Shown: positions 5,610 to 39,100 of the stretch, in pieces
How positions within the stretch are numbered: the stretch's first letter is position 1
Layout: the number at the start of each line of letters is the position of its first letter
Assembly: GCA_903813345.2 (NCBI GenBank)
Contig: CAIIXF020000006.1
Location: forward strand, 3,038,001-3,102,000
Source of the DNA: Owenia fusiformis
Lineage: Eukaryota > Annelida > Polychaeta > Sabellida > Oweniidae
Length of the DNA stretch: 64,000 nt
Direction: 5' to 3'
Program-made: the position numbers and the translations under genes
The notes under the pieces: generated by a model
The model's database searches: none
What the model was told of the DNA's origin: nothing
What the model saw: the letters and a program-made list of their open reading frames with translations, nothing else

Positions 5610-7330
5610 AGGCCCCATGTAAAGTTTAAACCACTTTGGCTTATATTGTAGTCTTACCCAATGTTATCAAAGTGTGATATGTGAAACTTTTTTTTTTTTC
5701 AAAAAGTGGTTTTTGAAAGACTTTTTGTTCCAAAATTTGTGAATTTATTTAAAACCAACTTTTAGAGGTCACTCATATCTTCTAACGAGCCACAATTCAT
5801 ACCAATGCATAGCATTCATCCTCCCATGTTATTGCCGAAAAAATTAAGAAAATCGGTTGATAAACAAGCGAAAAATGAATTTATCAGTGCATGAAAACGG
5901 TTCTTGCTCTAGGGGCGAGGGAAATTGTCAATAAATGGAGTATAGTTGGTTTGGCAGCATTTTCAGTTAGGGGAGAGTCTTGGATGAAATTTCCACCTAG
6001 GTGATAGCTTCACAGAGTGGTAGGAAGTTCTTTTTTTGAAGAGTTAGCCCCCTACCCCACAAAAACACCCCACCCCAGGGAAAAAAATTGTTCACACTAA
6101 ATAACCTTAGATATTTTGATGTTTGTAAGTGACATACATAGATATTATATATATGAATCATTTGCAGTATAATTGATGCTGATTACTCCTAAAAAAATTG
6201 AATATTAGTACAAAGTGTGTTCCCCAGGGGGCAAATTCGTGACCCATTTCCTTACTATTTTGATCCTAACTTTTCAACTAGACACTGTAAGAGGTTGAAA
6301 AAATTCATGTGAAGTGCCCAATAGCAGGGTTAGTAACCCTGAAAGATGCAAAGCCATGGAAGAGGTAGGAGCTGAGAAAAAAATTGTTGATTTTTCGAAA
6401 AATTTGACATTTTTGACAACTGGATTTTGTGTATGACTATAGCTGACCCCTATAGTTCCTCGATCCATCCCTCTATGATGATATATATGGTTTTATAGTG
6501 TGGAACTAAGATGTAAAACATAATTAAGATGGGTTTTAAGGAAGTTTAAGGTTTTAAACAGGTCCAAAATTTGAAAAATTGTAACTATAAGGTTTCAAAT
6601 TTACGAATTCCAGGTAGAGCCATGGCAGACCCCTATAGTTTCTAGATCCATCCCTCTATGGTGATACTTATGGTATTGCTGTATGGAACTAATATGTAAA
6701 ACACAATTTAGATGGGTTTTAAGGAAGTTTAAGGTTTTAAACAAGTTCAAAATTTGAAAAATTGTAAATATAAGGTTTCAAATTTACGAATTTCAGGTAT
6801 AGCCATGGCTGACCCTTATGGTTTTTACATCCATACATCTATGGCTAAATATACAGTTTTAGAGTGTGGGACTAAGATTTAACATACCCAAAATGAATTT
6901 TAAGAAAGTTTAAGGTTTTAAACAAGTCAAAAATTTGAAGAATTGTAAATATAAGGTTTCAAATTTACGAATTTCAGGTATAGCCATGGCTGACCCTTAT
7001 GGTTTTTACATCCATACATCTATGGCTAAATATACAGTTTTAGAGTGTGGGACTAAGATTTAACATACCCAAAATGAATTTTAAGAAAGTTTAAGGTTTT
7101 AAACAAGTCAAAAATTTGAAGAATTGTAAATGTAAGTTTTCAAATTTATGAATTTCAGGTATAGCCAAAGATTACCCTTATGGTATTTAACTAAAATGTA
7201 AAAGATGCATAAGATGAGTTTGAAGGAAGTTCAAGGTTTTAAACAAGTGCAAAATTTGAAAAATTGATCTCGAAAATTTGTCTCAAATTCACGTTATTCA
7301 GGTACAGCCTTGAATGAGCCCTGATAATCG
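5610..7330 (+). repeat. Left inverted arm of the 8.37-kb element
   Basis: About 840 bp of unique arm sequence is followed by five to six units of the ~181-bp repeat. The whole arm returns inverted at about 11830-13979. The 64-codon open frame at 6274-6468 (-) has a near copy in the other arm at 13221-13415 (+). Because the arms are copies of each other at DNA level, this similarity is not evidence of coding. Confidence 0.75.
6430..7310 (+). repeat. ~181-bp tandem repeat (left arm)
   Basis: The phrase GGTATAGCCATGGCTGACCC recurs at about 6613 (variant), 6797, 6978 and 7159, with more diverged copies at about 6430 and 7300, a spacing of 180-184 bp. Units share TTTAAGGTTTTAAACAAGT and AATATAAGGTTTCAAATTTA. 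The two middle units are nearly identical, suggesting recent homogenisation. Confidence 0.8.
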
Positions 7331-8432: not shown

Positions 8433-9188
8433 GCCGATATTTTCTCTCCTATCCGGCGCATTTTCCTTAAGACCAAAATGCTAGGAATTGAAAATCTGGT
8501 TAAATATGCGCTGGACTCTGGATATCTTCCGTCGAAGAGGTCATGGAGACTGCAAATTGTCAATGCTGTAAGATCCGTCGAGGTCAAGCAATTTTTCTTG
8601 CAATGCTCATGTTATGGCAAACTTTTATATCTACGTGACTATGTCACAGACTTAAAACCTTGCATATGGTGGTTGATTTGTCAGAAATATCCTAAATGTC
8701 AAAGCCAGTGTAAAACTATGATGCAATTGATATGTAACGCCCATGTATGAAATACGAACAACTTCAATGGTTCAAAACGATGTATATTGTGTAACCTCTG
8801 TGAAACTGAAACAATTGAACATTTTATATTAAGATGCCCTATGTATGAACCATATAGGCATAACATATTTGAAGCCCTTGGCTGTCGTGGTGACAGTATG
8901 GGTGTTATTATGAAGAAAGTTTTAGGTCTCTCAGATGTTTCATGTGAGACGTTAATAATTGTATCATCATGTGTACACAAAATGTACAATCACAGAGCCA
9001 ACCTGTTGGCTCTGCTTGACACATAATTTCTCTATCACTTTATTTTTATGTTTTCCAAAACAACAACTTTTTTATCACATAATTTAATCTTATCCTTGTA
9101 TTTTATATTTTATATGTAAACCACATGTATACTAAAATGTATTCTCTCATATAAATGAGGCAATAAATATACAATACAATACAATACT
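8433..9188 (+). pseudogene. Decayed LINE 3' end (C-terminal zinc knuckle and tail), plus strand
   Basis: This is the 3' portion of a non-LTR retrotransposon. One open stretch (8478-8750), a stop, then a second (8787-9026) contain the C-terminal C-x2-C-x6-H-x4-C finger (CNLCETETIEHFILRC) that closes many LINE reverse-transcriptase proteins. The element ends with GGCAATAAATATACAATACAATACAATAC, i.e. a tandem AATAC tail at about 9163-9188. The catalytic RT core is missing (5' truncation). It faces the second LINE (9255-10365) tail to tail across a ~70-bp spacer. The two share the ATACAATAC tail and the sequence just before it, so they belong to the same or sister families. Confidence 0.65.
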
Positions 9189-11829: not shown

Positions 11830-13979
11830 TACATTCAAAAAGAGGGACATCCAGGGCTATACCTGAAATCGTAAAGGAGGACTGAAAGTATCGCAACAGA
11901 TTTCAGCAATCATATGTTGGATTTTGGCTATTTTCTGAGGATTTGAGGAGGTGCATGTATGTTAGGCCAATGCATTTCCTTCAGGAAAAGCACCCTTAGA
12001 GATGATAAAATAATTTCTATTTTGAGACAGGGAAGGTGCAAACAACCCACCCACATGCATAAATATATATGTGTATATGTATAAATATATGTGTTTTTAC
12101 ATACAGTTAACCCCTTTAAATGAAAAATACATTCCATCAGGGACTTTAAAGATATCAAATATGGGTGACCAAAATTAAGCTGAAAGCAATGGATCACATG
12201 AGTTTTCCCTATGGGAAAATAACAGGAAAATATTGTTTTCCGCTTTATCTAAAAGAAATTTATCCTTTTAATGGTTAACTATGTCTCAAAACGCAACAAA
12301 TTGATGAAAAACCATAGGTGAACGGGGTTGAAAATCAGGACGACATTTCCCAAAAATCATGTGGGTGGATTGTTTTCACCTTCGCTGTCTCAAATTCCAA
12401 ACTATTTTATCATCTCTAAGAGTTCTTTTCCCGTAGGTAATGCAATGGCCTATCATATGCACCTGCTTAAATCCTCAGAAAACAGACAAAATCCAACATA
12501 TGACTGTCTGAAATCTGTTGCGATACTTTCCGTGCTCCTTTGAGACTTGATATTTCTCAATTTTTCAAATATTGCACTTGTTAAAATTCTTAAACTTCCT
12601 TAAAATTCATCTTCGGTATGTTTTACATCTTAGTTTCACACTCTAAAAGTATATGTTTCATCATAGAAGTATTGATGAAAAAGCCATAAGGGTCATCCAT
12701 GGCTATACCTAAAATTTGTAAATTTGAAACCTTATATTTACAATTTTTCAAATTTTGGACTTGTTTTAAATCATTAACTTCCTTAAAACCCATCTAAATT
12801 ATGTTTTACATCTTTAGTTCAATACTACAAAACCATAAATATCATCAAAGAGGGATGGATCTAGAAACTATAGGGTTCAGCCATGGCTATAGCTGGAATT
12901 CGTAAATTTGAAACCTTACATTTACAATTTTTCGAATTTTGGACTTGTTTAAAACCTATAACTTCCTTAAAACCCATGTAATTTATGTTTTACATCTTAG
13001 TTTCACACTATGAAAGCATAAATATCATCAAAGATGGATGGATCTAGAAACTATAGGGGTCAGCCATGGTTATACCTGGAATTCGTAAATTTGAAACCTT
13101 ATATTTACAATTTTTCAAATTTTGGACTTGTTTAAAACCTTTAACTTCCTTAAAACCCATCTAAATTATGTTTTACATCTTAGTTCCACACTATAAAACC
13201 ATAAATAGCATCATAGAGGGATGGATCTAGAAACGATAGGGGTCAGCTATAGTCATACACAAAATCCAGTTGTCAAAAATGTCACATTTTTCGAAAAATC
13301 AACAATTTTTTTCTCAGCTCCTACTTCCTCCATGGCTTTGCATCTTTCAGGGTTACTAACCCTGATATTGGGCACTTCACATGAATTTTTTCAACCTCTT
13401 ACAGTGTCTAATTGAAAAGTTAGAATCAAAACAGTAAGAAAATGAGTCACGAATTTGCCCCCTGGGGTACACACTTTGTACTGATATTCTTTAGGAGTAA
13501 TCAGCATCAATAATACTGCAAATTATTCATATATATAATATCTATGTATGTCACTTACAAACATCAAAATATCTAAGGTTATTTAGTGTGAATAATTTAT
13601 TCCTCAGGGTGGGGTGTTTTTTGGGGGTGGGGGGCTAACTCCTCAAAAAAAGAACTTCCTACCACTCTGCGAAGCTATCACCTAGGTGGAAATTTCATCC
13701 AAGACTCTCCCCTAACTGAAAATACTGCCAAACCAACTATACACCATTTATTGAGAATTTTCCTCCTCGCCCCTTGAGTACCTGAGAAAAATGCATTTCA
13801 AAATTTTAGTTCTCATAGAAACCAATGGTACAATGATATTTGAATATTTGAGAAATGAAATGCTCACAACTTTTTTTTCAAAAAATGTTTTTTGTTCAAA
13901 AATCTCTAAAATCACTTTTAAGTCCTGACAAATAGTAAATGAATGATAAAAAATTATTTTCAAACTTTAGACGGGGACT
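11830..13979 (-). repeat. Right inverted arm of the 8.37-kb element
   Basis: Reverse-complement copy of 5610-7330. It includes four to five units of the ~181-bp repeat (for example ATGGCTATACCT-type phrases near 12702, 12884 and 13066) and the distal arm up to 13979. One repeat unit is split by the MITE at 11873-12542: the unit starts at about 11853 and resumes at 12543. Confidence 0.75.
11873..12542. mobile_element. Palindromic MITE nested in a satellite unit
   Basis: AAAGGAGGACTGAAAGTATC at the left is mirrored by AAAGGAGCACGGAAAGTATC (inverted) at the right. The arms then share GCAACAGATTTCAG and CATATGTTGGATTTTG, giving stems of about 200 bp. The loop contains TATATGTGTATATGTATA-like sequence. 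It interrupts the ~181-bp repeat, hence is younger than it. Confidence 0.7.
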
Positions 13980-33100: not shown

Positions 33101-36100
33101 TCGATCTCAATATTTTTAGTTTTCATCGAATTCTTTAAAGTTGGCGTTATGCTTTGATGAACTATGAGACTAGGCTTATATGAAATGGAAACTCTGGAGT
33201 ATGATCATTTGTTCATATATAGTGCATGGGCGCTACAATTCAACGATATCTTCCATCGCTTAATGGAAGGTTACTGGAAATGTGTGATACGGTAGGGGTC
33301 ATGAAACCAAAAAGTCAGTATATTTGTTGCTATGTTATTATTGTTTTAAAACAAGGGATGTCACAAGTAAATCTCATCTTGCACGTGTGACTTTTAGGAT
33401 GAAAGTTGTAATATCTTGCATGGGGTAAAAATGGCTATGTAGGCTATCTTTGTTAGTCATATGAGAAAAGCCTGGTCTGTATTTCAAATGATATCAAAGC
33501 ATTGCCTCAACTTTCAAATAGTTAATTCCATGAAAACTAAAAATATCGAAATTAATACTTCCTGTCCGCCATCTTAAATGCTAAGGTGACGGCTGTAACC
33601 TTCGCTTGATACTTACCAGTGATAATGTAGATCTGACGCTTCTTTACCTCTTGTTCGAACAGTAAGCTTAGAGTTGAATGTGTTTCAGTATTTAATCCTT
33701 GTTATCAGATATACGAATTGATCTCTTCAATGTTGAATGAGATACAGCATTTGAATTTCCACACAAAAACTTATGGAATCTTAAGTTAATTTTGAGGTCA
33801 TATATTACACTTCATGAAATCTAAGGAATCGTCACCGTACAGCAGATGCGTCACCGTACAGATCTGATCTTTTTTAAATAAATGCACTGAATGATTATTT
33901 GCCGAATATTCATCTGTTCTAAAATGTGTAGATAACAAATACATATTCTCATAAAAATAATCCATACTCTCAGACGACAGGGAAAATAATAACCAAACGA
34001 AAAGTGAAAAAACAACATTTTTCTCTCGAGTCGATTGTGTGGGCCGATCCAGTCAGAAAAAATCCAAACAGTGCTCGAAAAACTTTTATCATAATTAGAA
34101 AGTTAAAAACATTGCTAAGAGAATGCTGTTTTTATTACACTCGAAATCGTATTTATTTTCATCTAATTAATTTATTTAAAACCCCCATTATAGTTTTTGC
34201 TTCAACTCAGTTAATTTTCGTCACCGTACAGAAACTGTACTACTGTATTTTTTGACGCTGTAGGGTGACGCCTGCTTACGCGATGGTTAGGCGTGTTGTC
34301 ATCAGCATATAAAATTTGATTCAAATCTGTCAACTGGTAAGTAGGTTATCTAATATTATGTTTTTTTAAGAAAAATGGCTGCCATTTTGAAATTCAGGTA
34401 CCATCTTGAAAATTCCTTTATCTCAAGACATCAGCATATAAAATTTGAATCCGTCCACTGGTACTTGAGTTATCAAAGATTATATTTTTTATAAAAAATG
34501 GTGGTCATTTTGAAATTTTGTAGTATTTTGATAATATTTTTTCGAGTGGAAGGTTTAATGCCTTTAGGCATCAGCATATGAAATTTGAACCAAGTTTATC
34601 CACTGGTTTTTGAGTTATCAAAGTTTATGTTCTGTTACAAAGAATGGCAGCCACTTTTAAATTTAGCTGCCATCTTGAAAATTCCTTCTCGACCAGAGCT
34701 CCTGTGTCCCTCGGTATCAGCATATAAAATTTGAACCAAGTCCTGCATTTCAGTTATCCAAGATTAATTTTTTTACAAAAAATTGGGGTATTTTGAATTG
34801 AGTGGCCATATTGAAAATTACTTCTCGAGCAGAGGTCCTACACTCATAAGGCATAAGCACATAAAATTTGAACAAAAATCTGTAAATTGGTATTTGAGTA
34901 ATTGCCCCGTCACACGGACGGACTGACGGATGGATGGACGGCTTTCCTATATCCCCCTTGTACTTCGTTCAGTCGGATAATAATTTCTAGGTTATCATCT
35001 TTGACTTCTTTTTATACCTATCTAAATGAAAAATGTTTTTCATGCATAAAAACTGGAATTTGGATATGAAAACTTCCTACATTCACATAAAAAGTCTCTG
35101 TGAGGAAAAAACAAAACTTAGACTATAGGCAAAATCAAAATCTGTGATTGCAGCTCAAACGCTTCCTTGTTTCCTAAACATACGAGTCTCAAAAGGGCCC
35201 TACCTGCCTTCCATCTAGATTGAGATTGGAGAGCAAATGTGTCGCATTCTTCTCTGGAAATGTTGTATTTCTCAGCCAGGTTCTCAGCTGTAATTCCCAT
35301 GGGAGTCTTGATATGGAGATCTGTTAAGGTTGCCCAGAGAGTATCCTCTAGCTAAAATGAATAGAGAAATGTTTAGAATATTTGCTTGTCATGTCTGTTT
35401 TCTAAATATCCCAATAATGCATACTTTATTTGAAAAAAAAGATTGTACAAATATCTAAAGATTGTGCAATTATTGATGCAATCTGTACATTTTGCACCAA
35501 AAAATTGGAGAGAAAACATGCATAAATCATAATTCTAAGTTCTTACTTTTAAATCCTGTCCTAGCTTAGTGCCAAATCGTGCCCCACGGAGAGTGAATGG
35601 TGCTCCACTCATGTGTTCAGAGCCACCTGCTATCCCTACATTGGCGTCATTGGTTAGGATATCCTAGAAAAGGAGCATATCGTTTAGTTAGGATAAGCAT
35701 TCTACTGTATTTATGTACAGTACGCAATGTGGTGATGTGTTCTCTAAAGTTCCCAAAGTAAAGTCTCTAAGTAAAACTTCTGATTTCTTTTCCTTTAAAT
35801 TGATGCAAGTTGACACAACCTCCAAACAAATCTCAATACAATCAAATTATAGGGCTTAAAGCTAAACTAAAACTGTAGAACCTGCTTCATTAGTATCAAT
35901 TCTTCAAAACTAAATTAATAAATTTTAGAACAAAAAATTAAAATTAGGTTCTAAATACCCAAGTGGCTGAGACTGCAGTCTTGGAGAATGCCGGGTCACA
36001 TTTAATTACAGTGTACTTTCAATTCTTCAAAACTATACAGACATAACACTGAGCCTGTAAATACCCAAGTGGCTGAGACTGCAGTCTTGGAGAATGCTGA

Positions 36101-39100
36101 GTCACATTTAATTACAGTGTACTTTCAATTCTTCAAAACTATACAGACATAACACTAAGCCTGTAAATACCTGGGTGGCTGAGACTGCAGTCTTGGAGAA
36201 TGCTGAGTCACATTTAATTACAGTGTACTTTCAATTCTTCAAAACTATACAGACATAACACTGAACCTGTAAATACCCAAGTGGCTGAGACTGCAGTCTT
36301 GGAGAATGCTGAGTCACATTTAATTTCAGTGTACTTTCAATTCTTCAAAACTATACAGACATAACACTAAGCCTGTAAATACCCAAGTGGCTGAGACTGC
36401 AGTCTTGAAGAATGCTGAGTCACATTTAATTACAGTGTACTTTCAATTCTTCAAAACTATACAGACATAACACTGAGCCTGTAAATACCCAAGTGGCTGA
36501 GACTGCAGTCTTGAAGAATGCTGAGTCACATTTAATTACAGTGTACTTTCAATTCTTCAAAACTATACAGACATAACACTGAGCCTGTAAATACCCAAGT
36601 GGCTGAGACTGCAGTCTTGGAGAATGCTGAGTCACATTTAATTACAGTGTACTTTCAATTCTTCAAAACTATACAGACATAACACTAAGCCTGTAAATAC
36701 CTGGGTGGCTGAGACTGCAGTCTTGAAGAATGCCGGGTCACATTTAATTACAGTGTACTTTCAATTCTTCAAAACTATACAGACATAACACTGAGCCTGT
36801 AAATACCCAAGTGGCTGAGACTGCAGTCTTGGAGAATGCTGAGTCACATTTAATTTCAGTGTACTTTCAATTCTTCAAAACTATACAGACATAACACTAA
36901 GCCTGTAAATACCCAAGTGGCTGAGACTGCAGTCTTGGAGAATGCTGAGTCACATTTAATTACAGTGTACTTTCAATTCTTCAAAACTATACAGACATAA
37001 CACTAAGCCTGTAAATACCTGGGTGGCTGAGACTGCAGTCTTGAAGAATGCCGGGTCACATTTAATTGCAGTGTACTTTCAATTCTTCAAAACTATACAG
37101 ACATAACACTGAACCTGTAAATACCTGGGTGGCTGAGACTATAGCCTGAAAGCCTGATCCACAGAGTCTGTTTACAGTGAGGCATGGCGTGGAAACTGGC
37201 ACTCCGTTTCTCAAAGCAACATGACGCCCCAGATATGCAGCATCAGGAGAATTCTGAAATATACATGTATGTATATTGTTTTACAGGGTGTTTTGTAATG
37301 AGACTCTGATTGGCTGTGGATGGGGGAAGTCATTATGAAACACCCTGTATATTAGCAATTATTTAATATTTAAGTTGAATGATTTGTGTAAATTCTGAAA
37401 AATAATTGCTTTATTGTTCATAAACTGAATTTCTCGCAATGACACTTTTCATCTTAATGCTCGTGCGAGCAACAGCTACAATAAAAGAACTCATGTATTA
37501 ACTAGGAAAATGGCAACTTTCTGGAATAGCAGATCCCACCAAACAAAACACATTTAACGAATCACTTAAAATTTTGATTGATTTTGAATAAACAGATAGA
37601 TGTACAGATTATTTATCTCCCTACTCGAATAACAATGTTCAGTGGGATATTGAGGCAAAAACTATTAGATTATAAATTATGTAACCTCCTTTCTCCTATA
37701 AGCCCTGGTTCTTATTACGAGAATGCCCAGAAATGGCTGATCATACAAAGCAAAAAATCTAATTGAATTAAAAGTCTCGAAAATATATACCAATGTCATG
37801 TAAGAATGCCTGAGATACTGACACAAAATATTAAAAAATAATGTCACTTGAACTATTGAGTGTAGATAAAAAATGAGTCATATATGTTCTAAGAAGTTTA
37901 ACTCAAAACATTTAGAGCGAAGAGGTGTGCGCCACAAATGGTTAGACGTCCCTGATGATAAGTTAACTGAGTTTAAGTACAACCAAAGTTCCATTATAAA
38001 TTATCTCATAACTCAAAGTCTACTTTTGTAACTCAAAGTTCAATGTTGTGTTTGATTACAACACTTTAAAAGTTCTAAAATTAAATGAATAGACGCCTTC
38101 TGAATAAATATTTTAACTTGGTAATTAGTTTAATTCTTTTTAAATTCTGTTCACACAAGAGAGTTTAAATAGTATTTACAATCTCATTCATAGCTGATTT
38201 ATAGTTTTCTATTATATATTTCCCTATCAAAGCACATGATATAACTTTAAGTTATGAAATTTAATGTAAGGGTTCTACATTATAATTTATGAAATCAATC
38301 CTCACTAGTAGCAGTTTCTTAGATTTAAATATACAGAAATTCTAAGAAATTATACAATACAGGAATATTACAAAAATAGCCTAGTGAATAACTTCTTGAT
38401 CTAATCTAATAAAAAGAACATTCATACACATTCACAAAAATAAATAATTATCTCAAAGTTCTTAGAATATAGACGTCAACTCATTTCTTTAGTTTTTTAT
38501 GTGACTCAAACTTTTGCATTAAAAACTTTAAATATTTTTAAACAAGCAGGCTTTTTAAATGGGAGTTATTAAAATTCCTATGGTATGGTTAATCCAGGAA
38601 AAGGTCTTGCTTCTGGTCACCACACATTCTTTTAGACCTCCCTGCCAAGCTATCTTTTTGAAAATGTCTATCTTTTTACATACAAAAATATAATAGTGAA
38701 ATGAAATGGCACAATCTGAAGAGCTCATATGGTGTAAATTTTTCATTTAATTAAAAAACAAGTCAAGTTTTCACTCAACATTTCTGTTATCTATCTACGG
38801 ACCAGACACACATTGTTTTTTTCTTGGCTTTGTATGATATTTTCATTCATCCCAGTTAGTTTCAAGCTAAATGTGCAAATCTGTCATATGATGATAAGAA
38901 CAGTATTGTACCACTTTAAACCCAGCATGATCTAATTGCATAATGAGTGTTAATAATTTATCACAAATGCACCCTACCTGTCCAACACTGCCTACAACAC
39001 ATGTGTCAATGATTTCTGGGTTGATACCTCCTGCCTTTAATGCAGCCCCTGCAGCAATCGCTCCTAAATCTACAGCTGTAAAGTCTTTCAGCTTACCACC

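What the first reader, a model, noticed from the sequence alone, without database searches (positions are those of the whole stretch)
35951..37253. A 106-bp tandem array that grew out of a coding exon border
Eleven units with a period of exactly 106 bp and no indels fill intron 3 of the thiolase gene, and the series continues in register into the last ~24 coding bases and splice donor of exon 3. Each unit keeps a donor (GTATTTACAG) and an acceptor-like CTCAG or CCCGG around a 32-base mini-exon beginning CATTCTCC, where exon 3 begins AATTCTCC. It looks like an internally deleted exon 3 amplified with its flanks. A 32-base exon is not a multiple of three, so inclusion would shift the frame behind the catalytic Cys92. 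The array could act as a splice decoy or a poison-exon switch, or be a neutral minisatellite.
Basis: partly seen in the sequence, partly recalled or inferred. Interest (0 to 1): 0.75.

Follow-up and report, generated by a model that had tools for sequence, protein, structure and literature searches.

The report
Minisatellite copying an exon's splice border
In the genome of what is very probably the marine worm Owenia fusiformis, the end of a fatty-acid-enzyme exon together with its splice site has been copied eleven times into the next intron; it is most likely harmless DNA growth of a kind known from lancelets, but a small survey found the same thing in several other genes of this worm, which raises the question of how splicing ignores so many decoy sites.

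Summary
The array is real: 11 head-to-tail 106-bp units, no indels, fill 80% of intron 3 of an ACAA2-type mitochondrial thiolase gene. The repeat runs in register into the end of exon 3 (16/16 bases identical, 20/24 beyond) and its donor. It occurs nowhere else in the 498-Mb genome. The poison-exon reading is weak: only 1 of 11 units combines an AG acceptor with an exon-like CAG|GT donor, and none has a pyrimidine tract. Internal deletion of exon 3 is not supported beyond an 8-base match; a contiguous copy of the exon 3 end plus intron 3 start fits as well or better. The genome is very probably Owenia fusiformis (12 chromosomes; Fox genes on exactly the nine published chromosomes). Arrays spanning splice borders are known as "mirages" in amphioxus. 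Here 11 more were found in a gene sample of about 285 kb (ALDH, a second thiolase, five CCT genes, an aminoacyl-tRNA synthetase). Excess over random placement: 10 against 4.3 expected, P=0.004, but P=0.12 if one four-array gene counts once. All five acceptor-side arrays sit at AG|GT (background 25%, P~0.001, post hoc). Best reading: neutral border minisatellite, a new member of the mirage kind, apparently the first in an annelid. No RNA was available.

The parts
37125..37253 (-). Exon 3 of the ACAA2-like thiolase gene, 129 nt, phase 0-0, encodes [43 protein letters not shown]
   Evidence: profile match; joined protein matches 4c2j; CAG|GTATTT donor
35664..37124 (-). Intron 3, 1461 bp (acceptor TTTTCTAG before exon 4 at 35547-35663)
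35959..37124 (-). Array: 11 complete units of exactly 106 bp, GT-to-GT, 92-100% identical; private to this intron
37115..37140 (-). Source border: last 16 nt of exon 3 (identical to the ends of units 1, 4 and 9; CCCAG variant) and the GTATTTACAG donor
35880..35958 (-). Diverged terminal half-unit: GTATTTA donor copy, a ~16-bp longer A+T-rich spacer, then TAGTTTTGAAGAATTGA shared with the units
   Evidence: alignment (score not significant on its own, P 0.14)
35547..35663 (-). Exon 4 of the same gene ([14 protein letters not shown]...GQDLK)

Best explanation
A neutral, border-spanning minisatellite of the kind called 'mirage' in amphioxus. Shown: a 106-bp segment that straddles the end of exon 3 and the start of intron 3 is repeated 11 times in the intron. 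Inferred: one tandem duplication across the splice donor placed a second border copy in the intron; unequal exchange or slippage then multiplied and homogenised it, while the exon kept its own border and was largely excluded from homogenisation. Splicing is inferred to stay normal because the authentic donor is the first one reached and the one nearest to exon 3, the decoy donors behind it are equal (3) or weaker (8), and no unit has a credible acceptor. The genome is prone to such arrays, as at least 11 others were found at donor and acceptor borders of conserved genes.
For: Array anatomy and uniqueness. Identity to exon 3 is perfect at the border and decays upstream. Variant types are shared between units at lags 3, 5 and 8 (97.4-97.5% against 95.5-95.9% at other lags) and units 2, 5 and 10 are identical, as expected from unequal exchange. 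Strong donor and AG acceptor rarely coincide (1 of 11 units). Same architecture in unrelated genes of this genome: L014 second thiolase acceptor 94 bp x 8.7, L027 ALDH donor 113 bp x 4, L046, L050, L051, L053 and L054 (four arrays) CCT genes, L058 aminoacyl-tRNA synthetase acceptor 40 bp x 24.8. Published mirages: tandem duplications of 5' and 3' intron/exon boundaries in amphioxus, copy-number variable, normal mRNA by RT-PCR (PMC3087553, PMC3902484).
Against: No RNA-seq junctions or population data were available, so normal splicing and copy-number variability are inferred from amphioxus. The excess of border arrays (10 against 4.3 expected, P=0.004; P=0.12 if L054 counts once) may mean that borders are favoured, in which case 'random neutral' is incomplete. 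In the small ACAD sample no array crossed a splice border.
Confidence: 0.78

Rival explanations
1. Regulated splice decoy or poison exon: the 32-nt mini-exons or decoy donors are used to send ACAA2 mRNA to decay.
For: All 11 units keep GTATTTACAG, 8 of 11 keep CTCAG. The authentic donor is itself weak (0.79, no G at +5), and 3 decoys equal it. Use of any later donor adds an in-frame stop 20 codons behind exon 3.
Against: No pyrimidine tract (longest run 3; real acceptors of the gene 4-10), 3 units lack AG, 8 decoy donors are weak, and only unit 9 has both. Published mirages are not used in mRNA. Units are homogenised, so keeping the sites needs no selection.
Confidence: 0.08
2. The unit is an internally deleted copy of the whole exon 3 with both flanks (intron 2 acceptor, exon 3 start, exon 3 end, donor), later amplified.
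For: AG|CATTCTCC against AG|AATTCTCC, P=0.002; local alignment through the acceptor P=0.007; right of the AG P=0.001 against real sequence.
Against: Anchored alignment into intron 2 is no better than chance (P 0.34-0.39) and beyond the first 8 exon bases P=0.11. A contiguous exon-3-end model explains the same bases (P 0.001-0.01) without a deletion of about 97 nt.
Confidence: 0.2
3. Splice borders in this genome are preferred sites of array birth or survival, not random hits. In acceptor-side arrays, survival depends on AG|GT, which lets a wrongly used decoy acceptor regenerate a donor and be spliced again (recursive removal of each unit as a GT..AG mini-intron).
For: 10 of 25 arrays cross exon edges against 4.3 expected, P=0.004. 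All five acceptor-side arrays (L014, L050, L053, L054, L058) are at AG|GT while 33 of 131 called acceptors are, P about 0.001; donor-side arrays show no such need (4 of 7 end in AG).
Against: Found after looking. P=0.12 if L054's four arrays count once. The fresh ACAD sample gave no splice-border array. AG|GT is invariant in the copies but so are their flanks, so no constraint is shown.
Confidence: 0.3
4. Assembly artefact: collapsed or inflated repeat, or a chimaera.
For: Copy number cannot be checked without reads; PMC3087553 reports one mirage that was misassembled in a genome draft.
Against: Nine variable columns give several distinguishable unit types, the downstream flank is unique, and similar arrays with different units lie in many genes.
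Confidence: 0.04

Closest known systems
[quoted passage not shown]
   Same: Tandem units of tens to ~160 bp that span a 5' or a 3' splice border, lie in the adjacent intron, copy the splice signal, homogenise within the cluster and exclude its boundary (PMC3087553, PMC3902484)
   Different: Here in a genome that is very probably an annelid, up to 25 copies, in six of about a dozen CCT/aaRS genes sampled. Polymorphism and mRNA not tested here.
Intron gain by tandem duplication of AG|GT proto-splice sites (Rogers; Zhuo et al. 2007; Gao and Lynch 2009; all as cited in PMC3087553; potato RdRp PMC4974935)
   Same: Tandem duplication across AG|GT makes GT..AG units
   Different: Here an existing intron is filled; the units carry intron sequence and no new intron position was shown.
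Earthworm metallothionein intron-1 minisatellites and unused tandem exon-4 copies (PMC12783039)
   Same: Annelid; intronic minisatellite of ~180-bp monomers; tandem exon copies absent from mRNA
   Different: The minisatellite is not described as spanning an exon border.
Poison exons / recursive splice sites
   Same: Decoy splice sites in an intron; a shift of frame if used
   Different: No credible acceptor in the ACAA2 units; recursion only conceivable at the acceptor-side arrays of other genes.

Membership tests
Mirage (border-spanning minisatellite) | Tandem head-to-tail units of minisatellite size | tested here: met
   106 bp x 11.2, 95%, no indels
Mirage (border-spanning minisatellite) | Unit spans an exon-intron boundary and copies its splice signal | tested here: met
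   16/16 exon 3 bases plus the 10-base donor in register; 10 further matches of the exon 3 donor border in the intron
Mirage (border-spanning minisatellite) | Private to the host gene, not a dispersed repeat | tested here: met
   only this locus in 498 Mb, with the tool's caveat on common words
Mirage (border-spanning minisatellite) | Copy-number instability between alleles or somatically | not testable with these tools
   one assembly, no reads
Mirage (border-spanning minisatellite) | Normal mRNA despite the copies | not testable with these tools
   no RNA data
Poison exon | Functional acceptor and donor around the cassette | tested here: not met
   sequence only: no pyrimidine tract; AG with CAG|GT donor in 1 of 11 units
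Poison exon | Conserved and included in NMD-sensitive transcripts | not testable with these tools
   no relatives or RNA
Intron gain by tandem duplication of AGGT | New intron whose ends are homologous to the flanking exons on both sides | tested here: not met
   the unit carries intron 3 sequence next to the donor; in L014 the unit carries a polypyrimidine tract, not the upstream exon end

The most novel reading that the evidence does not exclude
Splice-border minisatellites are pervasive in Owenia (thousands of borders if the sampled rate of roughly 7 arrays per 100 conserved exons holds). They are born or kept preferentially at AG|GT junctions because recursive splicing removes each decoy unit as its own mini-intron, so the genome is a natural experiment on how the spliceosome chooses among up to 25 near-identical sites and a continuing source of intron sequence.
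Probability: 0.22. Interest if true: 0.8.

Novelty: new member of a known kind. Interest (0 to 1): 0.52.

Why it matters
Mirages were found in the held literature only for amphioxus. Finding them at a dozen borders in a small sample of what is very probably an annelid genome suggests either that they arise repeatedly or that they have been overlooked in many genomes. Arrays such as L014 (7 decoy acceptors with the same 30 bases of intron and most of the same exon start as the true one) and L058 (25 copies) make a sharp test of exon definition, first-AG choice and recursive splicing, and a practical warning for gene prediction and for copy-number typing.

Tried and rejected
Satellite or transposon origin of the unit: rejected, one locus only and no match among 190 kb of sample. 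Structured RNA: no Rfam family in the window, fold z-scores -0.4 and -1.6. Amphioxus as the source: considered when the mirage papers surfaced; rejected because of 12 chromosomes, no GFP-family match (a weak negative) and the Fox-gene map fitting Owenia. COX1 to settle the organism: not in the assembly. ALDH-wide repeat detection by profile: only 12 of 214 candidates were scored, so not usable. Model of an internally deleted exon 3: not supported by anchored tests. Test of constraint on AG|GT in the copies: uninformative because flanks are equally invariant.

Full report
WHAT IS THERE. The window lies at G000:C6:3038001-3102000 of a 498-Mb eukaryotic assembly. On the minus strand from about 39.1 to 30.7 kb is a thiolase gene. 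Eight exons (exons 2 to 9) were modelled by hand. Joined, they give a 368-residue protein that aligns without a gap to human mitochondrial 3-ketoacyl-CoA thiolase ACAA2 (4c2j, E 5.9e-165). Exon 3 is 37125-37253 and ends ...GTC TCA GCC ACC CAG|GTATTTACAG. Intron 3 is 35664-37124. TRF finds 106 bp x 11.2, 95% matches, 0% indels. Twelve donor copies stand 106 bp apart from 37124 to 35958. The array makes up 1166 of 1461 bp of the intron.

UNIT ANATOMY. Nine of 106 columns vary among the 11 units. Units 2, 5 and 10 are identical, as are 3 and 8, and 6 and 7; mean identity is 97.4-97.5% at lags 3, 5 and 8 and 95.5-95.9% at other lags, as unequal exchange would leave. The end of exon 3 is identical to units 1, 4 and 9 over 16 nt, then 20/24 and about 25/32. 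The donor GTATTTACAG is exact in the 11 donors that head a unit. The terminal copy at 35958 keeps GTATTTA and, after a longer A+T-rich spacer, TAGTTTTGAAGAATTGA. No other locus in the genome matches the array or its downstream flank.

WHERE THE UNIT CAME FROM. Two origins were tested for the ~45 nt upstream of the shared end. (A) A contiguous copy of the last ~55 nt of exon 3 (CACTGTAA...): anchored alignment P=0.0075-0.01 by dinucleotide shuffles under two scorings and 0.145 under a third, gap-averse one; 0/500 and 0/173; 0.001-0.005 against random real sequence. The stretch is also close to an inverted repeat of the unit's own intron part (P 0.02-0.07). The core claim, a copied exon border, is certain; A is preferred to B, but neither extension is proven.

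DOES IT DO ANYTHING? With an approximate metazoan donor table (from memory, so only relative scores matter) the real donor scores 0.8, three decoys the same, eight decoys -3.1 (TGG|GT); the other donors of the gene that were located by motif score 1.1-6.2. Acceptor-like CTCAG has AG in 8 units; the longest pyrimidine run is 3 against 4-10 for the gene's real acceptors. Only unit 9 has AG and CAG|GT together. Use of a later donor would add [20 protein letters not shown] and a stop. The anatomy argues against a maintained cassette; it cannot exclude rare use. No structured RNA was found.

ORGANISM. Twelve chromosome-size contigs (62.2, 35.8, 34.9, 31.9, 42.5, 40.8, 39.8, 39.3, 38.9, 37.5, 37.3, 36.7 Mb). 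Forkhead genes lie on C1, C3, C4, C5, C6, C8, C9, C10 and C11 only. If contigs are in lexicographic order of chromosome names, these are chromosomes 1, 2, 3, 5, 6, 7, 8, 11 and 12, exactly the nine reported for Owenia fusiformis, with clusters on 5 and 7 as reported for foxQ2 (PMC9539403). That species has 12 chromosome-scale scaffolds and 505.8 Mb (PMC9977687). Identification is by this fit, not by a name in the data. The species is an annelid.

IT IS NOT ALONE. The thiolase profile search itself showed eight evenly spaced matches in a second thiolase gene. There, 94-bp units repeat the acceptor CTCCCCTTCAG and 78 nt of the last exon, 8.7 copies, eight exact acceptors including the true one. 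An ALDH gene repeats the exon GVFNVVTGSG...FTGSTG with its donor (GTAAGT or GTGAGT) four times. In loci of CCT and class I aminoacyl-tRNA synthetase genes, chosen only by gene family, 9 of 18 arrays cross an exon border: L046, L050, L051, L053, four in L054, and L058. A direct search for copies of each exon border within 2.5 kb found these again. Over thiolase, CCT/aaRS and ACAD loci (168.7 kb, 151 exon matches; the window itself left out) 10 of 25 arrays cross a border against 4.3 expected from random placement, P=0.004; with L054 counted once, P=0.12. The ACAD loci, fetched as a fresh sample, gave three arrays and none at a splice border; one (L063) starts in the last codons of an exon and runs into what looks like the 3' UTR. 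So the phenomenon is common; a true preference for borders is suggestive only.

AN UNEXPECTED REGULARITY. All five acceptor-side arrays sit at exons that begin with GT (AG|GT), against 33 of 131 called acceptors, P about 0.001. Donor-side arrays end in AG in 4 of 7 cases. One reading is tolerance: decoy acceptors precede the true one, and using one is harmless only if it recreates a donor and the unit is then removed as a mini-intron. This was noticed before it was tested, the count is small, and copy conservation is uninformative. It is offered as a hypothesis.

COMPARISON. [quoted passage not shown]; the original 2002 Adh paper was not found in the library). The present array meets the structural definition; polymorphism and mRNA are untested. 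Searches of the held library found no report of mirages in an annelid or of such arrays in Owenia; papers not held could contain one.

VERDICT. Observation confirmed; interpretation partly supported. The array is best explained as a neutral border minisatellite (mirage). The wider result is that this genome carries many of them.

Noticed in passing
L054 (G000:C11:133001-143000), 1-615, 1945-2344, 6071-7142, 8615-9089: One CCT chaperonin gene carries four separate border arrays (105 bp x 5.9 donor, 96 bp x 4.2 acceptor, 53 bp x 20.2 donor, a ~30-bp complex donor array).
   Followed up: partly
L014 1491-2308 (C11:21156491-21157308): Second thiolase gene: seven decoy acceptors nearly identical to the true acceptor of the last exon over 30 intron bases and most of 78 coding bases.
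   Followed up: yes
L058 1656-2648 (C11:11019656-11020648): 40-bp acceptor-border unit repeated 24.8 times before an exon of an aminoacyl-tRNA synthetase gene.
   Followed up: partly
L063 3499-3727: 31-bp x 7.4 array that starts in the last codons of an ACAD-type gene (KKQQAKL stop) and continues into what looks like the 3' UTR: the same growth at a coding end without a splice site.
   Followed up: partly
L065 (C1:35562701-35564300), matches 504 bp apart: Whole exon of an ACAD-type gene duplicated in tandem (76-84% identical around both borders): possible alternative exons or two adjacent genes.
   Followed up: no
window 6483-7189 and 12539-13247: Two tandem arrays of 181 and 183 bp units that match each other and appear to be in inverted orientation 5-6 kb apart; perhaps the ends of one mobile element.
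   Followed up: no
L063 (C12:32321001-32329000): The same C-terminal ACAD exon is found four times within 6 kb at uneven distances.
   Followed up: no
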